DNA of 64,000 nucleotides from Clostridia bacterium (GTDB lineage Bacteria; Bacillota; Clostridia; UBA1381). The stretch lies in the NCBI GenBank assembly GCA_017415105.1, contig JAFQJD010000021.1, positions 1-64,000 of the forward strand, in the 5' to 3' direction. Made by a program: the position numbers and the translations under genes. How positions within the stretch are numbered: position 1 is the stretch's first letter; every line of letters begins with the position of its first letter. Shown here in pieces: positions 1,883 through 31,044 of this stretch. Under the pieces are notes generated by a model, which made no database searches, was not told the origin of the DNA, and saw only the letters and a list, made by a program, of their open reading frames with translations.

Positions 1883-2776
1883 ATGTCATTGATAGAAAAA
1901 GAGCTTGGAGCTATTATGGACGGGATATTTGCCGATTATAAAGAAAATAAGTTCATAGACAAGGTTGACATATCAAATCAACCTGATAAAAAGATTATAT
2001 GCGACATACTTTCCAAACTGCAGGAAATAATATTTCCGGGGTTCTTTAAGCCTGACACATATAAGACATATACTGTAAAATCTACAATTTCAATGCTTGT
2101 TGAGGATGTGCTATTCAATCTCAAAAATCAGATAGCAATAACACTTAAATATGATCCGGTATTTTCAGATTCCCCGGTTTGTGAAACGGAGGGCGAGGCA
2201 CAGCGGATAGCAGTGGGGTTTCTTAAGAGGATTCCGACACTGCGTGAGTATATCGAAACCGATGTAACAGCAGCATTTGACGGTGATCCGGCAGCATATA
2301 ACAAGGAAGAAATAGTTGTGACATACCCCGGCTTTTATGCGATAATGGTAAACCGTATCGCACACGAGTTACATCTGCTTGGTGTACCGCTTATACCGAG
2401 AATTATGACCGAGCACGCACATTCGCTTACGGGTATAGATATTCATCCTGGTGCTACAATCGGTAAATATTTCTTTATCGACCATGGCACAGGTATAGTT
2501 ATAGGTGAAACAACGGTAATCGGCGACAACGTAAAGATTTATCAGGGCGTAACGCTTGGTGCTCTTTCGACACGTGGGGGACAGTCGCTTAAGAACGTAA
2601 AACGTCACCCGACAATCGAGGATAACGTAACGATATATTCAGGTGCAACAATCCTTGGCGGCGAAACGATAATCGGCAAGAATGTTGTAATCGGCGGTAA
2701 CACGTTTATTACATCGTCTGTTCTTGAGGGCACAAAGGTAAGTGCAAAACAGCCTGAGCTTAATTTCAAAAAGTAA
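1883..2776 (+). CDS. cysE: Serine O-acetyltransferase (EpsC/CysE type)
   Basis: A 297-aa serine acetyltransferase that makes O-acetylserine for cysteine synthesis. The N-terminal half is helical. The C-terminal left-handed beta-helix is built of hexapeptide repeats and holds TGIDIHPGATIG, HGTGIVIGETT and YQGVTLGALS, the acetyl-CoA and serine pocket. Its length matches the long EpsC-like clade rather than the shorter form. AGGAGGAG precedes the start. No cysK is visible nearby. A strong terminator follows directly. Confidence 0.93.
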   Translation: MSLIEKELGAIMDGIFADYKENKFIDKVDISNQPDKKIICDILSKLQEIIFPGFFKPDTYKTYTVKSTISMLVEDVLFNLKNQIAITLKYDPVFSDSPVCETEGEAQRIAVGFLKRIPTLREYIETDVTAAFDGDPAAYNKEEIVVTYPGFYAIMVNRIAHELHLLGVPLIPRIMTEHAHSLTGIDIHPGATIGKYFFIDHGTGIVIGETTVIGDNVKIYQGVTLGALSTRGGQSLKNVKRHPTIEDNVTIYSGATILGGETIIGKNVVIGGNTFITSSVLEGTKVSAKQPELNFKK

Positions 2777-25397: not shown

Positions 25398-25691
25398 TTA
25401 CATTCTTCTGTTTATATTTATTCTTATGTCGAGCATATCCTGTTCATTATACAAATCCATAACCGGCATGTTATAGAGCTTTGCAAGTTCTCCGAACGCT
25501 ACTAAAGGAATATTTGATTCTTCGTGTTCGTATTTACTTAAAGTGTTTCGATGAATGTTTAGTGAAGATGATGCATAGGATAAAGACATATTATTATATT
25601 TACGCATCAGTTTAAGTGCCAGTCCGATAGGGTGACAGTGTATTCTGTCATACTTGTCCTTGTAAACTAAATAATAGTTCTTCTTTTTCAT
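25398..25691 (-). CDS. XRE-family HTH regulator
   Basis: A 97-aa protein with a Cro/C1-type helix-turn-helix (about 25-80). LSYASSSLNIHRNTLSKYEHE is shortened here: the helix pair is SYASSSLNIHRNTLSKYE. AAAGGATTATATT precedes the ATG. It is the downstream member of the agr-linked cluster. A promoter with LytTR-type direct repeats and a tandem 16-bp repeat (25726-25757) precede it. Role unknown; it may relay the quorum signal. Confidence 0.86.
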   Translation of the reverse strand: MKKKNYYLVYKDKYDRIHCHPIGLALKLMRKYNNMSLSYASSSLNIHRNTLSKYEHEESNIPLVAFGELAKLYNMPVMDLYNEQDMLDIRININRRM

Positions 25692-25725: not shown

Positions 25726-25757
25726 AAGAACATACTATACTAAGAACATACTATACT
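25726..25757. repeat. Tandem 16-bp direct repeat in XRE promoter
   Basis: AAGAACATACTATACT occurs twice in perfect tandem (25726-25741, 25742-25757). It overlaps the -10 region and the transcription start of the XRE gene. It may be an operator for the XRE protein itself, as Cro-like regulators often autoregulate through repeated sites. Confidence 0.85.
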
Positions 25758-25815
25758 AAAAGGAAAGTGCAGTCAATAAATTGTTTCTGAGTGGTGCGTA
25801 TAGTGCTTGAATGGT
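25748..25815 (-). promoter_or_regulatory. LytTR-type promoter A (XRE gene)
   Basis: On the minus strand direct repeats ACCATTC (25809-25815) and ACCACTC (25789-25795) lie 20 nt apart, then exactly 12 nt, TTGACT (25771-25776), 17 nt, TAGTAT (25748-25753). It matches promoters B and C. Confidence 0.8.
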
Positions 25816-25845
25816 GGCTCTTTTATCATATTATTGTGTGCACTT

Positions 25846-25878
25846 AAATCATAACCACCATCATGGTGGTTATGATTT
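25846..25878. other. Palindrome downstream of DUF6273 gene
   Basis: AAATCATAACCACCA and TGGTGGTTATGATTT form a 15-bp perfect stem. There is no good T-run on either side. It may be a weak terminator or an mRNA 3' stabiliser for the minus-strand gene. Confidence 0.6.
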
Positions 25879-25890
25879 GTTAGAATCTGT

Positions 25891-27231
25891 TTAATTATGT
25901 GCAGGAATAATAGTACCATTTTCGTCAATTATATAGCCTGTTATTTTTTTACTGTATTCTACTTTATATCCTAATGCCTCCATTAAAAATCTGACAGGGA
26001 TATAGGTGCGTTCGTTTATAATTTGTGCTGTTGTATCCATTTCGATGGTTATATCGTCATATTTAAGGATATTACTGCCTACAGTAAGGAGTATGGTTTT
26101 AACTCCGTCACTGATTACTATATCTTTGGTAGTATCATCATAAATGACACTATAGTCCAGATCTTCGGCAATTGCACGTACCGGAATTTGTGTGCGGTCA
26201 TTGCTGTCGATGAATGGTTTAGCATCGTTAAAATTTAATATTTTGTTATTGATTGAAAGAGATAAATCCCATTTATCATTTATAACCTTGAGAATTTTTT
26301 CGGGTGAGGGAAGTGGAGAGTTCTCAACAGGCTTATTTGAAATTATGTATGGGTGTTCCTTTGAACCATTGCCTTCTGTAAATTCTGTGTTATTCTCCAG
26401 ATAGAATGCGGGACGGATGCCGTGGCTTGAACTTGCGGTGCCTATATCGCCATATGTGAGCTCTCCGTTTGCGAGCCATATATGAGCAGTACATTGAGGC
26501 AACCCGGTCAGGCGTGGAGTTCTTAATGAATATATAGTTTTGTAATTATCGGTAAGTTCTTCAAAATCTCCTTCATAAATCCAATTTTCCCAGTAAAGAA
26601 AATCTGTGCCGAGATTTTGGATAATCATATTCATCTGATTTTCATCGAGGAGAAATATTTTATCGGTAGTGTTCTGATATTTCTGCACAGTTGCGACACC
26701 CTCGAAGCTGTCAAAAAAAGTATATGTTTCATGCTCGCCATCTGCTAAAACAGAGTCGTATTCACTTAATGTTGTTTTTAATGTTACTGTTTTTATTGCA
26801 TCGATTTCCTTTGTGTTGAAGTTTGTCAGAAACCCCGGTTCTTTATCATATGGATTTTTTCTGTGTTCGACTTTATCTTTGGATGGGGTTTCGGATGGTG
26901 TATATGTAACAGTCGATTCGTTTGAATTAAGCCATGTGCGTATGGATGAGTCAGACCAGAGATGGCTGCCTAAACTATGCCGAAGCTCGATTTCGCTGTC
27001 ATCATACATTGCATCAAAAGCCTTGTAACATACAATGTCTTTGCATACCATAAGTTTGCCGTTTTCATCATCACCTACATATCTGAAAATCATAGGAGTG
27101 TTATTGTATGTACCAATTTTTACATAGTCGCCCATTTTTAAATGCTGTTGTGCATTAGCCACATGGATGGGTGTTGTCAATGTGATTGTGGTCGCAATTG
27201 CTGTAATTAGTGCCAATAATTTCTTTTTCAT
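25891..27231 (-). CDS. Secreted DUF6273 plus copper-amine-oxidase-N-type protein
   Basis: A 446-aa exported protein. A signal peptide (MKKKLLALITAIATTITL...) ends near residue 27 (VANAQ). A DUF6273-like domain (about 32-270) has GDYVKIGTYNNTPMIFRYVG and WSDSSIRTWLNS; a copper amine oxidase N-terminal-like repeat domain (about 330-440) has RTQIPVRAIAEDLDY and RTYIPVRFLMEALGY. These are typical of secreted, envelope-associated clostridial proteins. AGGAGGGCAC precedes the start. It follows the 209-aa gene, 65 nt apart, in the AgrA-type promoter B transcript. Confidence 0.85.
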   Translation of the reverse strand: MKKKLLALITAIATTITLTTPIHVANAQQHLKMGDYVKIGTYNNTPMIFRYVGDDENGKLMVCKDIVCYKAFDAMYDDSEIELRHSLGSHLWSDSSIRTWLNSNESTVTYTPSETPSKDKVEHRKNPYDKEPGFLTNFNTKEIDAIKTVTLKTTLSEYDSVLADGEHETYTFFDSFEGVATVQKYQNTTDKIFLLDENQMNMIIQNLGTDFLYWENWIYEGDFEELTDNYKTIYSLRTPRLTGLPQCTAHIWLANGELTYGDIGTASSSHGIRPAFYLENNTEFTEGNGSKEHPYIISNKPVENSPLPSPEKILKVINDKWDLSLSINNKILNFNDAKPFIDSNDRTQIPVRAIAEDLDYSVIYDDTTKDIVISDGVKTILLTVGSNILKYDDITIEMDTTAQIINERTYIPVRFLMEALGYKVEYSKKITGYIIDENGTIIPAHN

Positions 27232-27265
27232 GATTGTGCCCTCCTATATATAGTTCTTTGGGAAT

Positions 27266-27292
27266 TATAGCCACCGTTAAACGGTGGCTATA
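27266..27292 (-). other. Intercistronic hairpin
   Basis: TATAGCCACCGTT pairs with AACGGTGGCTATA. It lies just after the 209-aa gene stop and lacks a T-run. It may tune expression between the two secreted-protein genes. Confidence 0.6.
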
Positions 27293-27295
27293 GAA

Positions 27296-27925
27296 TTAAA
27301 AATCACTGCCCTGAACATTGATTATTCCGGAATAAGATTTGGATTTATCTGCCAAATCATTCAACTCTATCTTAATAGCATAAAATACACCTGTTGTAAA
27401 TGAGTTGAATGAAACAGAATCAAAAGGTGATGATTTCAGATAAAGTATTTTTGGACTTAATGTACTTCCACCTGAAGTTATCGGTACAATACTTATATCC
27501 AACGGAATACTTCCGGATAATGCTCCCTGTGGCGCAGCTTGAAAATAAACTCTTTTACTTGGTGAAGTTGCACCTATCATAAAATCGGCATATATAGCAG
27601 AGTTTCCTGTGAGAGTAAAAGAAAAAGTTGCTGTTTCGTTCATATGCCAACCTGGGTAGGAAGTAGAGCCTGTTCCATATAAATATGCGTCAGCAGAATT
27701 ACTATCGGGTTCATAAGGCTGCCCTGCTCCTAACAAAGAGATCCCATCATACACCGGTGTAATATTACCATTTTCGTCGATAGTATATGAAACCTTTTGG
27801 AAATAGTCTAATGAATCTACAGTTCCGTGTACATCAGTGTTATTTGCCATTGCTGATAAACTCATTGCTGACATTGTTGTGATTGTAGCCAAGCCTATAG
27901 CTAAAAGTTTTTTGAATTTTTTCAT
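27296..27925 (-). CDS. Secreted protein of unknown function (209 aa)
   Basis: A 209-aa protein with an N-terminal signal peptide (MKKFKKLLAIGLATITTM..., cut near residue 28, AMAN). The mature part is Ser/Thr/Gly-rich and beta-predicted, with ATFSFTLTGNSAIYADF, as in immunoglobulin-like or adhesin-type folds. I recognise no family. AGAAAGGACGG precedes the ATG. It is the first gene after LytTR promoter B and is probably a quorum-induced surface or secreted product. Confidence 0.8.
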   Translation of the reverse strand: MKKFKKLLAIGLATITTMSAMSLSAMANNTDVHGTVDSLDYFQKVSYTIDENGNITPVYDGISLLGAGQPYEPDSNSADAYLYGTGSTSYPGWHMNETATFSFTLTGNSAIYADFMIGATSPSKRVYFQAAPQGALSGSIPLDISIVPITSGGSTLSPKILYLKSSPFDSVSFNSFTTGVFYAIKIELNDLADKSKSYSGIINVQGSDF

Positions 27926-28031
27926 AATATTGTCCGTCCTTTCTTGTTGAACTTTTGCTTTTTTGACTTCTGCCTGTGACGTCTCACAGATTTTGTAAAC
28001 AGTTTCAAAAGTACTTTTTGTTTACATCTCC

Positions 28032-28100
28032 AATATACAACATAAATAGATTTCAGTCAACTGAAAAAGTTCGAGTGGAAGGAATTTAATCCTGAGTGGT
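28032..28100 (-). promoter_or_regulatory. LytTR-type promoter B (secreted-protein operon)
   Basis: On the minus strand ACCACTC (28094-28100) and TCCACTC (28073-28079), 21 nt apart, then 12 nt, TTGACT (28055-28060), 17 nt, TATATT (28032-28037). The leader to the first gene is about 100 nt and contains TGTGAGACGTCACA, a small hairpin. Confidence 0.8.
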
Positions 28101-28107
28101 AGTTCTT

Positions 28108-28142
28108 AAAAATAAAAGCACCGGTGTTATACCGATGCTTTT
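28108..28142 (-). terminator. Terminator of agrDB, overlapping agrB stop
   Basis: On the minus strand AAAAGCATCGGT, loop, ACCGGTGCTTTT, then TATTTTT. It ends immediately before the LytTR promoter B elements. Confidence 0.8.
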
Positions 28143-28723
28143 GGTGATTTTTTATGCAAATACTCAAGATGCAGTTTTCCTGCAATAACAAAAACAGTGA
28201 CAGATGCAATGCTTAATGTCATAACTTTAGCTATTATGTATAGATTCAGCAAAGCCGTAAGAAGAAAAATTATAAATGCAACTGCAGTGAGTATTCTTGC
28301 GACTTTTCCGAAGACAATGGTTTCATCTTTGTCAAGGGGTTTATTAACTGCCTCGACGGGAACCAGAACCAATAATACCAATGTTGCTGTTGATGTTATT
28401 AATGCAAGGATAACCATGCTGATTGGCACAAATTTAATTATGTACAAGACAATAGGACACATTATTATGGTGGATAAATAACATCTGAATGACGTACTGA
28501 AATGAAATCCACCGCAGTATTTGCGTAAAGCCTTATATATGAGCCAGAACACAATACATTCCCATACCATATGCATAGCGATGCCTATAAGCAATAAACT
28601 GATGTCGGTTACTACGATATTGAGAAGCAGTGTCATCATATATACATATTCTTCATATTGTTCTTTATCTACATATTTATGCAATACAGCATAGTCTAAG
28701 ATTCTCTTTGATACAGATTCCAT
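28127..28723 (-). CDS. agrB: AgrB-type autoinducer-processing protease
   Basis: A 198-aa membrane cysteine endopeptidase that cleaves and cyclises AgrD. The catalytic pair is visible in KYCGGFHFSTSFRC: His74 and Cys81 match the known AgrB His/Cys spacing. About five or six membrane helices follow. It starts 5 nt after agrD. Processing an AgrD without cysteine would imply serine as the cyclising residue. Confidence 0.92.
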   Translation of the reverse strand: MESVSKRILDYAVLHKYVDKEQYEEYVYMMTLLLNIVVTDISLLLIGIAMHMVWECIVFWLIYKALRKYCGGFHFSTSFRCYLSTIIMCPIVLYIIKFVPISMVILALITSTATLVLLVLVPVEAVNKPLDKDETIVFGKVARILTAVAFIIFLLTALLNLYIIAKVMTLSIASVTVFVIAGKLHLEYLHKKSPKASV

Positions 28724-28728
28724 AACAA

Positions 28729-28884
28729 TCAGAACTTTCTGTATTTCTTAAGAGAAGCCGGCGGTGTCGGCTGACCGTTAGCAAGGCTTGCAGTTGAGTT
28801 AGTATGAATTACAAGCAAAGTTGCCATAACCATAGGAAGAGTTCTCATAGCAAAACCGAATGCCTTATTCAAAGCTTTTTTCAT
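28729..28884 (-). CDS. agrD: AgrD-like cyclic lactone precursor without cysteine
   Basis: A 51-aa AgrD-like peptide that is below the usual size limit for gene callers. Residues 1-28 form an amphipathic helix (MKKALNKAFG... TLPMVMATLLVI). The C-terminal charged tail QPTPPASLKKYRK (38-50) is the classical AgrD recognition segment. Between them lies STASLANG (30-37). The usual Cys is absent; S33 with L34-A35-N36-G37 could form a five-residue serine lactone. AAGGAGGTAAAGG precedes the ATG. It lies between LytTR promoter C and agrB. Confidence 0.85.
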   Translation of the reverse strand: MKKALNKAFGFAMRTLPMVMATLLVIHTNSTASLANGQPTPPASLKKYRKF

Positions 28885-28910
28885 GGTCCTTTACCTCCTT
28901 TTTTAAAAAA

Positions 28911-28978
28911 ATTATATAAAGGAGCAGGAAAAAAGTAAATATTTTTACACTGAGTGGTTGCTATATTGCCTGAATGGT
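28911..28978 (-). promoter_or_regulatory. LytTR-type promoter C (agrD-agrB)
   Basis: On the minus strand ACCATTC (28972-28978) and ACCACTC (28952-28958), 20 nt apart, then 12 nt, TTTACT (28934-28939), 17 nt, TATAAT (28911-28916). It overlaps the 3' end of agrC. Confidence 0.82.
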
Positions 28979-30268
28979 AGTTCTTGTGGTGTTATTCTGC
29001 ATAATAATGGTCGTGCAAAAGATTTTATCCTTTGGGTCATACGCCCATTTTAAATTACCGTCATATTTTTTTAGGGTACGGCGTATGCTGTTCATGCCTA
29101 TTCCATGGAGATTTTTATTATCCTTATGCGTACGCAATCTGCCGTCAATTACAAGTGGCTCTGTATCGGATGAGTTTTCCATATTTATAATGACATAATT
29201 ATCGTTTGACATATGTATATCTAAATGAATATGTTTTATGTCAGAATTTTCACACCCTTCAACAGCGTTATTGATTAGATTTGAAAATAATGAAACTACG
29301 TCCAGATGGTTTATAAAAGATAATTGAGCCTGTATAGGGTCAATTTTGAAATCTATTCTTTTTTCAAGACACTCATCTTTTCTTTTTGTGAGAAGCCAAT
29401 TAAGCATAAAGTTATCAGAATAATCAACAGCTTGTGATGATTCTTCTTCAATACAAAGTGATTTGATGTATTCTAAAGCTTCGGTATTGTTTCCGTCATT
29501 TTTGCTGACCAAGGAAGCAACAGCCATCAGATGCTCCTTTAAATCGTGATGAAGAATGCGTAATTTTTCGTCTTTTTCCTTTAAAGACAAATAATGCTCT
29601 AACTGTAAATTTTCTTTAGTCTGTTCGGATTTAAGTTCCGCAATTTCCAAATCCTTATTTGTCATTCTCTTATTTATGAATAATGAAATACAATTAATCA
29701 GGATTAGAAGAAAGCAGGCTATTGATAAAAAATTAGAGACAATATTAGTTTTTATAATAAGAACTAATATTGCAATAGTTATAGTAGGTATAGAAATTAA
29801 AGCTATTGGAGGTGTTCCGTAGTCTCTAATATCGTTAGAGAATAATTTGCTGATTATAAGAACTCCAATTAAATATAATGACTTGCTTGCAAGTGTCAAA
29901 ATCATTGATTGAGTCGGACTCATTGTTACTGTGTTATCGGGGAATATGCCGAGATATGGGATGAGTATAACTAACAATTCGCTTGATATTGAAAGAATTA
30001 CCAATATAAAACTTTGAAATAAAGCATTTTTTAATTTTATATGATAACATAAAGTAAAGCACAGCAAATTAATAACTGCAAATACTGCAGTATTAAGAAC
30101 AACATTACCGAAAGTGCATATCAGAAAATGTATAAGATAATTTATTGCTATTATAAAATAGCACAGCCATTTGCTTCTCTTTTGATAAAATAATGTATCA
30201 GCATAGTAAATAAAAAATATATATTCCAACGCTATTCCGAGAGCCATACCTAAATCTATTCTCATCAT
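28961..30268 (-). CDS. agrC: AgrC-type sensor histidine kinase (GHKL)
   Basis: A 435-aa membrane histidine kinase. Six or so N-terminal membrane helices (about 1-200) sense the peptide. The cytoplasmic part has the phosphoacceptor region LHHDLKEHLMAVASL, the N box NLINNAVEG and the G box LHGIGMNSIRR (GHKL ATPase). The ATG at 30268 overlaps the agrA stop (ATGATGA) and follows GGGTGG. It pairs with AgrA. Confidence 0.93.
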   Translation of the reverse strand: MMRIDLGMALGIALEYIFFIYYADTLFYQKRSKWLCYFIIAINYLIHFLICTFGNVVLNTAVFAVINLLCFTLCYHIKLKNALFQSFILVILSISSELLVILIPYLGIFPDNTVTMSPTQSMILTLASKSLYLIGVLIISKLFSNDIRDYGTPPIALISIPTITIAILVLIIKTNIVSNFLSIACFLLILINCISLFINKRMTNKDLEIAELKSEQTKENLQLEHYLSLKEKDEKLRILHHDLKEHLMAVASLVSKNDGNNTEALEYIKSLCIEEESSQAVDYSDNFMLNWLLTKRKDECLEKRIDFKIDPIQAQLSFINHLDVVSLFSNLINNAVEGCENSDIKHIHLDIHMSNDNYVIINMENSSDTEPLVIDGRLRTHKDNKNLHGIGMNSIRRTLKKYDGNLKWAYDPKDKIFCTTIIMQNNTTRTTIQAI

Positions 30269-30981
30269 TTGCTTGCCACCCATTCTATAAGTTTATTGTG
30301 AAAAATTTTGTATTTACGCCTTGATATGCACACCTTGTATGTGGTTTCCTTGCATTGGCAGATAGCAGTGTCATGTGTGTGCTTTGTAACATAGTTGAGG
30401 TTGACATAATAACCTCTGCAGGTTTCTGTAAAATACTCAAGGTCTTTAATTTGTGCATAGACATTTTTAAGAGTGTCATCAGTAATAATTTCGCCTTTTT
30501 TTGTTATGATGTGGAGACGTTTATTTTCCATATAAATATATATAATATTCTGAACACATACAGGTGTTTTTTTATTGTTAATTTTTATGTTGATATAATA
30601 GTTTGATGACTGAAGTTCTTTGATAGCACTCTTAATTCCGTATTCTAAAGTATGTCGCTCTATAGGCTTTGTCCAGAAACGAAACGGACGTTCGTTACTT
30701 GCTTCTTCGTGATACGTCGGATGATTTGTGACGAAGAAAGGCAGACAATCTTTATTAATTGATTTTAACTTGTTTGCGGTTTGTATTCCGTTTAACTCAT
30801 CCATTTCGATATCAAGAAAAACAATATCATAAGCTTTTGGTGCCTGCAGTAAATCAAGAGGAGATGTATACTCGTCTATGCAGTGCCTTATATTGAGATT
30901 CTCCAAAACCGAGTGGATTAAACCGCTCTCATCCTTTATTGTACTTTGGTTATCGTCGCATATTGCAATGTTTAGTTCCAT
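30265..30981 (-). CDS. agrA: AgrA-type LytTR response regulator
   Basis: A 238-aa response regulator. The receiver domain has acidic pocket IAICDDN and phosphoacceptor Asp57 in FLDIEMDEL. The C-terminal LytTR DNA-binding domain (about 135-235) has NIIYIYMENKRLHI and CRGYYVNLNYV. AAGGAGTG fits the ATG at 30981; an earlier GTG is inside the RBS. AgrA is the candidate binder of the repeats at promoters A-C. Confidence 0.94.
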   Translation of the reverse strand: MELNIAICDDNQSTIKDESGLIHSVLENLNIRHCIDEYTSPLDLLQAPKAYDIVFLDIEMDELNGIQTANKLKSINKDCLPFFVTNHPTYHEEASNERPFRFWTKPIERHTLEYGIKSAIKELQSSNYYINIKINNKKTPVCVQNIIYIYMENKRLHIITKKGEIITDDTLKNVYAQIKDLEYFTETCRGYYVNLNYVTKHTHDTAICQCKETTYKVCISRRKYKIFHNKLIEWVASK

Positions 30982-31015
30982 AGTTTGCACTCCTTTTTAA
31001 AGTCATTATGGGAAT

Positions 31016-31044
31016 ATTTTACAATATTTTGCCGAAAAAGTCAA
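31016..31044 (-). promoter_or_regulatory. Promoter of agrA-agrC
   Basis: On the minus strand TTGACT, 17 nt, TAAAAT, with no LytTR-type repeat upstream. Confidence 0.7.

What the first reader, a model, noticed from the sequence alone, without database searches (positions are those of the whole stretch)
25748..28978. Three promoters with identical LytTR geometry define a compact AgrA regulon
Promoters at 25748-25815, 28032-28100 and 28911-28978 (all minus strand) share one layout: two direct repeats close to ACCA(C/T)TC, 20-21 nt apart, exactly 12 nt upstream of TTGACT/TTTACT, and exactly 17 nt to the -10. LytTR regulators such as AgrA bind paired 9-bp direct repeats near the -35, so the match is meaningful. 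They drive an XRE regulator, two secreted proteins and agrDB itself. The agrA promoter (31016-31044) lacks the repeats, which fits positive feedback on the peptide only.
Basis: partly seen in the sequence, partly recalled or inferred. Interest (0 to 1): 0.85.

Follow-up and report, generated by a model that had tools for sequence, protein, structure and literature searches.

The report
Three AgrA-type promoters in agr locus
A gut Clostridia genome has one quorum-sensing regulator of the AgrA kind and exactly three promoters with the matching paired docking site, all within 3.3 kb of each other beside it; relatives keep the same layout, so this is a compact, self-amplifying cell-to-cell signalling circuit of a known type.

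Summary
The three minus-strand promoters carry paired repeats (ACC-A/G-C/T-T-C/T-A/G-G), 20-21 nt start to start, with TTGACT/TTTACT 12 nt downstream and a -10 hexamer 17 nt further on. Nothing else in the 1.8-Mb genome has this layout with up to 3 mismatches. A Markov null gives 0.035 repeat pairs per 64 kb and none with a promoter. AgrA is the only LytTR protein found in the genome. In 9-bp terms the layout is repeat-N11/12-repeat-N10-(-35), the published LytTR arrangement (PMC6193735). Orthologous agrACDB loci in seven relatives (AgrA 40-47% identical) have an operator behind agrC, mostly ACCRYTY; six keep the full promoter layout. agrA promoters lack the motif in all 11 loci checked. Across paralogous LytTR loci the geometry stays while the repeat sequence tracks the LytTR clade. 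Best reading: phosphorylated AgrA activates agrDB, a secreted-protein unit and an XRE gene, with feedback on the peptide only. Binding is inferred, not shown. It is a new member of a known kind; C. difficile RgaR and agr2 are the closest precedents. Side lead: a conserved antisense hairpin RNA in relatives.

The parts
28911..28978 (-). Site C: AgrA-type operator and promoter of agrDB. Repeats 28978-28970 and 28958-28950, -35 at 28939-28934, -10 at 28916-28911. Repeat 1 lies in the last codons of agrC.
   Evidence: Sequence; same layout behind agrC in relatives
28032..28100 (-). Site B: AgrA-type operator and promoter of the secreted-protein unit. Repeats 28100-28092 and 28079-28071, -35 at 28060-28055, -10 at 28037-28032.
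   Evidence: Sequence; second sites at the same place behind agrB in L040, L056, L057, L052
25748..25815 (-). Site A: AgrA-type operator and promoter of the XRE gene. Repeats 25815-25807 and 25795-25787, -35 at 25776-25771, -10 at 25753-25748.
   Evidence: Sequence
30265..30990 (-). agrA: response regulator with receiver and LytTR domains; the only LytTR protein found in the genome
   Evidence: Pfam PF04397 1.5e-10, PF00072 1e-8; genome scan with PF04397
28961..30283 (-). agrC: sensor kinase with GHKL ATPase domain
   Evidence: Pfam PF14501 4.7e-20
28729..28884 (-). agrD: 51-aa signal-peptide precursor, ...NSTASLANGQPTPPASLKKYRKF
   Evidence: Position before agrB; aligned with eight relatives, 43-61% identical; no family model hit
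28127..28723 (-). agrB: peptide-processing membrane protease
   Evidence: Pfam PF04647 2.2e-33
27296..27925 (-). 209-aa secreted protein with N-terminal Myrrnad-like signal region; first gene behind site B
   Evidence: Weak NCBIfam NF038275 hit, 3.8e-5, below cut-off; homologues in 7 other family genomes
25891..27231 (-). 446-aa secreted protein, DUF6273 plus Cu_amine_oxidN1; probably read through from site B
   Evidence: Pfam PF19789 2e-12, PF07833 5.5e-28
25398..25691 (-). 97-aa XRE-type (HTH_3) regulator behind site A
   Evidence: Pfam PF01381 2.3e-5; only generic HTH matches elsewhere in the family
31016..31044 (-). agrAC promoter, TTGACT-N17-TAAAAT, without LytTR repeats
   Evidence: Sequence; no ACCRYTY half-site upstream
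28114..28142 (-). Terminator-like hairpin at the end of agrB; site B begins just behind it
   Evidence: Terminator scan

Best explanation
This is the operator set of a single, self-contained agr quorum-sensing circuit. agrAC is made at a basal level from its own repeat-free promoter. AgrD is processed and exported by AgrB; the peptide activates AgrC, which phosphorylates AgrA. An AgrA dimer binds the paired 9-bp repeats centred near -50 and -70 and activates three promoters through RNA polymerase: agrDB (feedback on signal supply only, from an operator overlapping the 3' end of agrC), a secreted-protein unit (209-aa protein and, by readthrough, a 446-aa surface protein), and an XRE regulator. 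Shown by sequence: the layout, its uniqueness in the genome, its conservation with AgrA, and AgrA being the only LytTR protein found. Inferred: binding, activation and peptide sensing.
For: Three identical layouts, unique in the genome. One LytTR protein found in the genome. Layout matches published LytTR operators and C. difficile RgaR sites at -51/-72. All seven agrACDB relatives have an operator behind agrC; six keep the promoter layout, five of them with ACCRYTY-type repeats. Family-wide pattern: 23 hits against 4 for the reversed control in 70 genomes. Second ACCRYTY sites behind agrB or elsewhere in L040, L056, L057 and L086. In paralogous LytTR loci the repeat sequence follows the LytTR clade while the geometry stays. 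Eleven agrA upstream regions lack the half-site.
Against: No binding or expression data. The half-site lacks the GTT core of the LytTR consensus I remember, and this AgrA has FTETCRG where FxRxHRS is typical. Spacers are 17 nt, whereas S. aureus AgrA promoters have 18-20 nt. In C. difficile, RgaR activates agrB1D1 without sensing its peptide, so feedback cannot be assumed. The -10 of site A is weak. L036 has a degraded second repeat and no recognised -35 in my scan.
Confidence: 0.88

Rival explanations
1. The repeats are operators of the XRE regulator or another non-LytTR factor, and their position near agr is incidental.
For: One of the three sites lies in front of the XRE gene, as autoregulatory operators often do.
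Against: Relatives with the same repeats behind agrC have no XRE orthologue, only generic HTH matches. The repeats are direct and 20-21 nt apart with 10 nt to the -35, as for LytTR proteins. The motif changes with the LytTR clade. The XRE promoter has a separate 16-bp tandem repeat better suited to an XRE.
Confidence: 0.04
2. AgrA binds the sites, but the loop does not close: AgrC senses something other than this AgrD, as with C. difficile RgaS-RgaR, so peptide output is regulated without positive feedback.
For: Precedent in C. difficile (PMC10602386). AgrD is strongly conserved across genera in its C-terminal half, unlike typical fast-diverging signal-receptor pairs.
Against: agrA, agrC, agrD and agrB stay together in one order in seven relatives, as expected of a signal-receptor pair; C. 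difficile agr1 lacks its own agrCA.
Confidence: 0.15
3. The three promoters look alike because of local duplication of one promoter and only the agrDB copy is functional.
For: They lie within 3.3 kb on one strand and share sequence mainly in the repeats.
Against: Outside the repeats and hexamers the three sequences are unrelated by eye, and spacing differs by one base in B. Relatives carry second sites behind agrB as well.
Confidence: 0.05

Closest known systems
Clostridioides difficile RgaS-RgaR regulon (VirR-like boxes)
   Same: A VirR-type regulator with a handful of promoters genome-wide, including an agrBD promoter; paired direct repeats whose critical bases lie at -51 and -72 (PMC10602386), close to the centres estimated here.
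   Different: RgaR does not sense the agrBD peptide; half-site sequence appears different; its targets include an sRNA.
Clostridioides difficile R20291 agr2 (agrACDB)
   Same: Same gene order agrA-agrC-agrD-agrB and LytTR AgrA (PMC3754575).
   Different: About 75 transcripts change in the agrA mutant there; I found no description of an operator between agrC and agrD in the passages read.
Staphylococcus aureus agr P2/P3 with AgrA
   Same: AgrA dimer on two direct repeats just upstream of the promoters, controlling its own signal genes.
   Different: Order agrBDCA so feedback covers all four genes; promoter-proximal repeat centred near -60 and spacers of 18 and 20 nt (PMC4227749); RNAIII output.
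LytTR Regulatory Systems (HdrRM/BrsRM)
   Same: 9-bp direct repeats, 11-13 bp apart, usually 10 bp upstream of the -35; sequence varies while spacing is kept (PMC6193735).
   Different: Those pair a LytTR regulator with an inhibitory membrane protein, without sensor kinase or peptide.
Clostridium perfringens VirR boxes
   Same: Two imperfect direct repeats upstream of a small set of promoters, bound by VirR, with spatial arrangement critical (PMC2688746).
   Different: 12-bp boxes with different sequence; other target genes, including a regulatory RNA.

Membership tests
LytTR (AgrA-type) operator | Two direct repeats of about 9 bp separated by 11-13 bp | tested here: met
   N11, N12, N11 at sites A, B, C; definition from PMC6193735
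LytTR (AgrA-type) operator | Repeats about 10 bp upstream of a sigma-70 -35 element | tested here: met
   N10 counted from 9-bp repeats at all three sites
LytTR (AgrA-type) operator | Half-site resembles the LytTR consensus | tested here: inconclusive
   ACCATTCAG/ACCACTCAG differ at one or two positions from the consensus as remembered; the published statement is that sequence varies while spacing is kept
LytTR (AgrA-type) operator | A LytTR protein is encoded and linked | tested here: met
   AgrA PF04397 1.5e-10; only LytTR protein found in the genome
LytTR (AgrA-type) operator | Regulator binds the repeats | not testable with these tools
   Needs gel shift or footprint
agr quorum-sensing locus | agrB, agrD, agrC and agrA together | tested here: met
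   PF04647, PF14501, PF00072+PF04397; AgrD aligned with eight relatives
agr quorum-sensing locus | AgrD with a Cys or Ser (lactone-forming) residue before a conserved Pro-rich tail | tested here: met
   One column holds only Ser, Cys or Thr (S,S,C,T,S,C,S,S,T) before xxNGQPxPP; ring formation itself not shown
agr quorum-sensing locus | AgrA activates the signal-gene promoter | tested here: inconclusive
   Operator present and conserved; activation not measured
agr quorum-sensing locus | AgrC responds to its own AgrD peptide | not testable with these tools
   Needs peptide and reporter
VirR/RgaR box regulon | VirR-box sequence | not tested
   No VirR-box consensus was fetched or aligned; only positions were compared

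The most novel reading that the evidence does not exclude
In this bacterial family each LytTR regulator-kinase pair carries a private operator right behind the kinase gene: one fixed geometry, but a repeat sequence that changes with the LytTR clade, so that up to a dozen agr-like circuits per genome (12 AgrA-like matches in G069) could run in parallel without crosstalk. The window is the single-circuit case. In some relatives the AgrA-driven leader is additionally overlapped by a conserved antisense hairpin RNA.
Probability: 0.5. Interest if true: 0.65.

Novelty: new member of a known kind. Interest (0 to 1): 0.42.

Why it matters
It predicts a complete, minimal quorum-sensing regulon from sequence alone in an uncultured gut Clostridia lineage: one regulator and three promoters, all within about 5.6 kb. 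The paralogue comparison gives matched pairs of LytTR domain and operator, which could be used to work out how LytTR proteins, an unusual beta-strand DNA-binding class, choose their sequence. Feedback on the signal genes only, not on receptor and regulator, is a clear difference from the staphylococcal circuit and is testable.

Tried and rejected
XRE as the binder: no orthologue in relatives that keep the motif. Larger regulon elsewhere in the genome: none at up to 3 mismatches; the one other paired-core hit, on contig C8, has no promoter hexamers at the required spacing. XRE operator elsewhere: the 15-mer GAACATACTATACTA has no other match better than 2 mismatches, at control level. Known RNA families: none in the window region or in four related loci. 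Function of the 209-aa protein by structure: model too poor (mean pLDDT 49.8), so no fold search was made. Repeats at the agrA promoter: no ACCRYTY half-site in 11 loci. The single genome-contig scan with AgrB gave five loci, one of them too distant to use.
Full report
Observation. The three promoters were read directly. In 7-base terms the layout is ACCATTC-N13-ACCACTC-N12-TTGACT-N17-TAGTAT (A, 25815-25748), ACCACTC-N14-TCCACTC-N12-TTGACT-N17-TATATT (B, 28100-28032) and ACCATTC-N13-ACCACTC-N12-TTTACT-N17-TATAAT (C, 28978-28911). Small corrections: B's second repeat starts TCC, and A's -10 at 17 nt is weak, with TATAGT at 15 nt as an alternative.

Chance. A first-order Markov model of the window gives 0.035 paired cores per 64 kb and none followed by the -35; three were observed. 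In the whole assembly (1.80 Mb, 40 contigs, 93.9% complete) the paired core occurs four times, three of them here. The full layout with up to three mismatches occurs only at these three places, with no control hits. An unassembled site in the missing 6% cannot be excluded.

Which regulator. The window's AgrA has receiver and LytTR domains, and a PF04397 scan finds no other LytTR protein in the genome. Counted as 9-bp repeats, the layout is repeat-N11/12-repeat-N10-(-35). Published LytTR operators have 9-bp direct repeats 11-13 bp apart, with a strong bias to 10 bp before the -35, and sequence varies more than spacing (PMC6193735). Taking the start site about 7 nt behind the -10, the repeats centre near -50 and -70; mutating the C. 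difficile RgaR site at -51 and -72 lowers expression (PMC10602386).

Relatives. Seven related loci have agrA, agrC, agrD and agrB in the same order: L036, L040, L048, L052, L055, L056, L057 (AgrA 40-47% identical). All have an operator behind agrC. Five (L040, L048, L055, L056, L057) have ACCRYTY-type repeats with the promoter layout; L055's first repeat departs at one base, and L057's spacer is 16 or 17 nt depending on the -10 chosen. L052 has the layout with a different repeat, ACAGCATTT. L036 has a clear first repeat but a degraded second one, and no -35 that my scan accepted. In several of them the stop codon of agrC lies inside the first repeat. Across 70 family genomes a pattern of two repeats plus the start of a -35 gives 23 hits against 4 for the reversed control. 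Second ACCRYTY sites occur behind agrB in L040, L056 and L057, and in front of a secreted-protein gene on another contig in G009 (L086). No ACCRYTY half-site occurs upstream of agrA in 11 loci. A tally of 32 half-sites gives A31 C32 C32 (G19/A13) (C20/T11) T31 (C19/T11) (A23/G9) G25; the sites were chosen partly by this motif, so the tally is biased towards it.

Paralogues. A motif-free search for paired 9-mers plus promoter near the kinase stop codon found high-scoring operators (5 or more) at about half of some 40 LytTR-kinase loci, against 0.6% of random 100-nt windows. The search ranges differ (340 nt, 100 nt in the control), and the control includes some real sites. The repeat differs between clades: ACCRYTYRG with RGYxxN-type LytTR domains, ACCGAAGTT or ACCAATCCT with HQSYxVN, ACAGCATTT or AACAYTTRA with HxSCYVN. 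LytTR distance and operator distance correlate (27 loci, Mantel r 0.33, p 1e-4). Several operators in that test were assigned by eye from the output, and linkage alone could give a correlation. The independent sites A and B in the window, which share the motif without being next to agrC, argue for recognition in trans.

Mechanism. Best reading: basal agrAC from a repeat-free promoter; AgrD processed by AgrB; AgrC-AgrA activation; AgrA on the three operators. Site C makes the signal genes self-amplifying but not the receptor and regulator. Site B follows the agrB terminator-like hairpin (28142-28114) and leads into the 209-aa secreted protein; the 446-aa protein (DUF6273 plus Cu_amine_oxidN1) follows after a hairpin at 27267-27291 (read), so its inclusion is inferred. 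Site A leads into the XRE gene. Binding, activation and sensing are inferred. In C. difficile, RgaR drives agrB1D1 but does not sense its product, so the closed loop needs a test.

Comparison. The gene order is that of C. difficile agr2 (PMC3754575); the compact regulon with an agrBD promoter is like RgaR. S. aureus P2 and P3 differ in spacer (18 and 20 nt) and repeat position (about -60) (PMC4227749). I therefore call this a new member of a known kind. The clade-specific operator set is the more novel reading and is not proven.

Side lead. In relatives, a hairpin RNA of about 75 nt with its own promoter (TTGACAAATC...TATACT) lies on the opposite strand, upstream of several small secreted-protein genes. 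Some of these lie behind AgrA-type operators. A covariance model from seven copies (10-pair helix, two pairs with changes on both sides) gave 11 hits in 6 of 70 genomes, none in the window's genome. Of the four hits outside the training set, two are a further copy and a contig-end repeat of known ones. The other two, G069:C78 (behind an AgrA-paralogue operator) and G044:C177, are new places. Both carry the TTGACAAATC promoter, which was not part of the model. Of the loci holding copies, only L040 and L057 were scanned against Rfam, with no match.

Noticed in passing
L040 1970-2085 (+), L057 28-145 (+), L140 610-725 and 2365-2480 (+), L144 4444-4560 (+), L146 1099-983 (-), L147 828-712 (-), L111 about 2063-2147 (+), L154 from 12: Conserved hairpin RNA of about 75 nt with its own TTGACAAATC...TATACT promoter, on the strand opposite to and just upstream of small secreted-protein genes in relatives, some behind AgrA-type operators. 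No Rfam match in L040 and L057; absent from the window's genome.
   Followed up: partly
window 28729-28884: AgrD of this clade ends NSTAS..NGQPxPPxSLKKYRKF-like; the presumed ring-forming column holds Ser, Cys or Thr, mostly Ser, and no Pfam or NCBIfam model recognises it.
   Followed up: partly
window 25728-25758: Perfect tandem repeat GAACATACTATACTA x2 (16-nt period) over the -10 region of the XRE promoter, unique in the genome; possible autoregulatory XRE operator.
   Followed up: partly
window 30265-30990: The LytTR motif of this AgrA reads FTETCRG where FxRxHRS is typical; most of its clade shares RG at the last two positions, alongside a non-standard half-site.
   Followed up: partly
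window 25891-27231; L041 15866-17104, L044 5687-6274, L058 5977-7050, L089 7164-9176: Secreted proteins with a Cu_amine_oxidN1 domain recur behind AgrA-type operators in different paralogous circuits; how common the domain is genome-wide was not checked.
   Followed up: partly
window 27267-27291: Strong hairpin (ATAGCCACCGTTTAACGGTGGCTAT on the minus strand) without a T run between the two secreted-protein genes; may reduce or process readthrough.
   Followed up: no
L057 1-108 and L142 1-108: Contigs G045:C33 and G045:C40 share an identical 108-nt end, suggesting they adjoin and that the agr locus there continues into a secreted-protein gene.
   Followed up: partly
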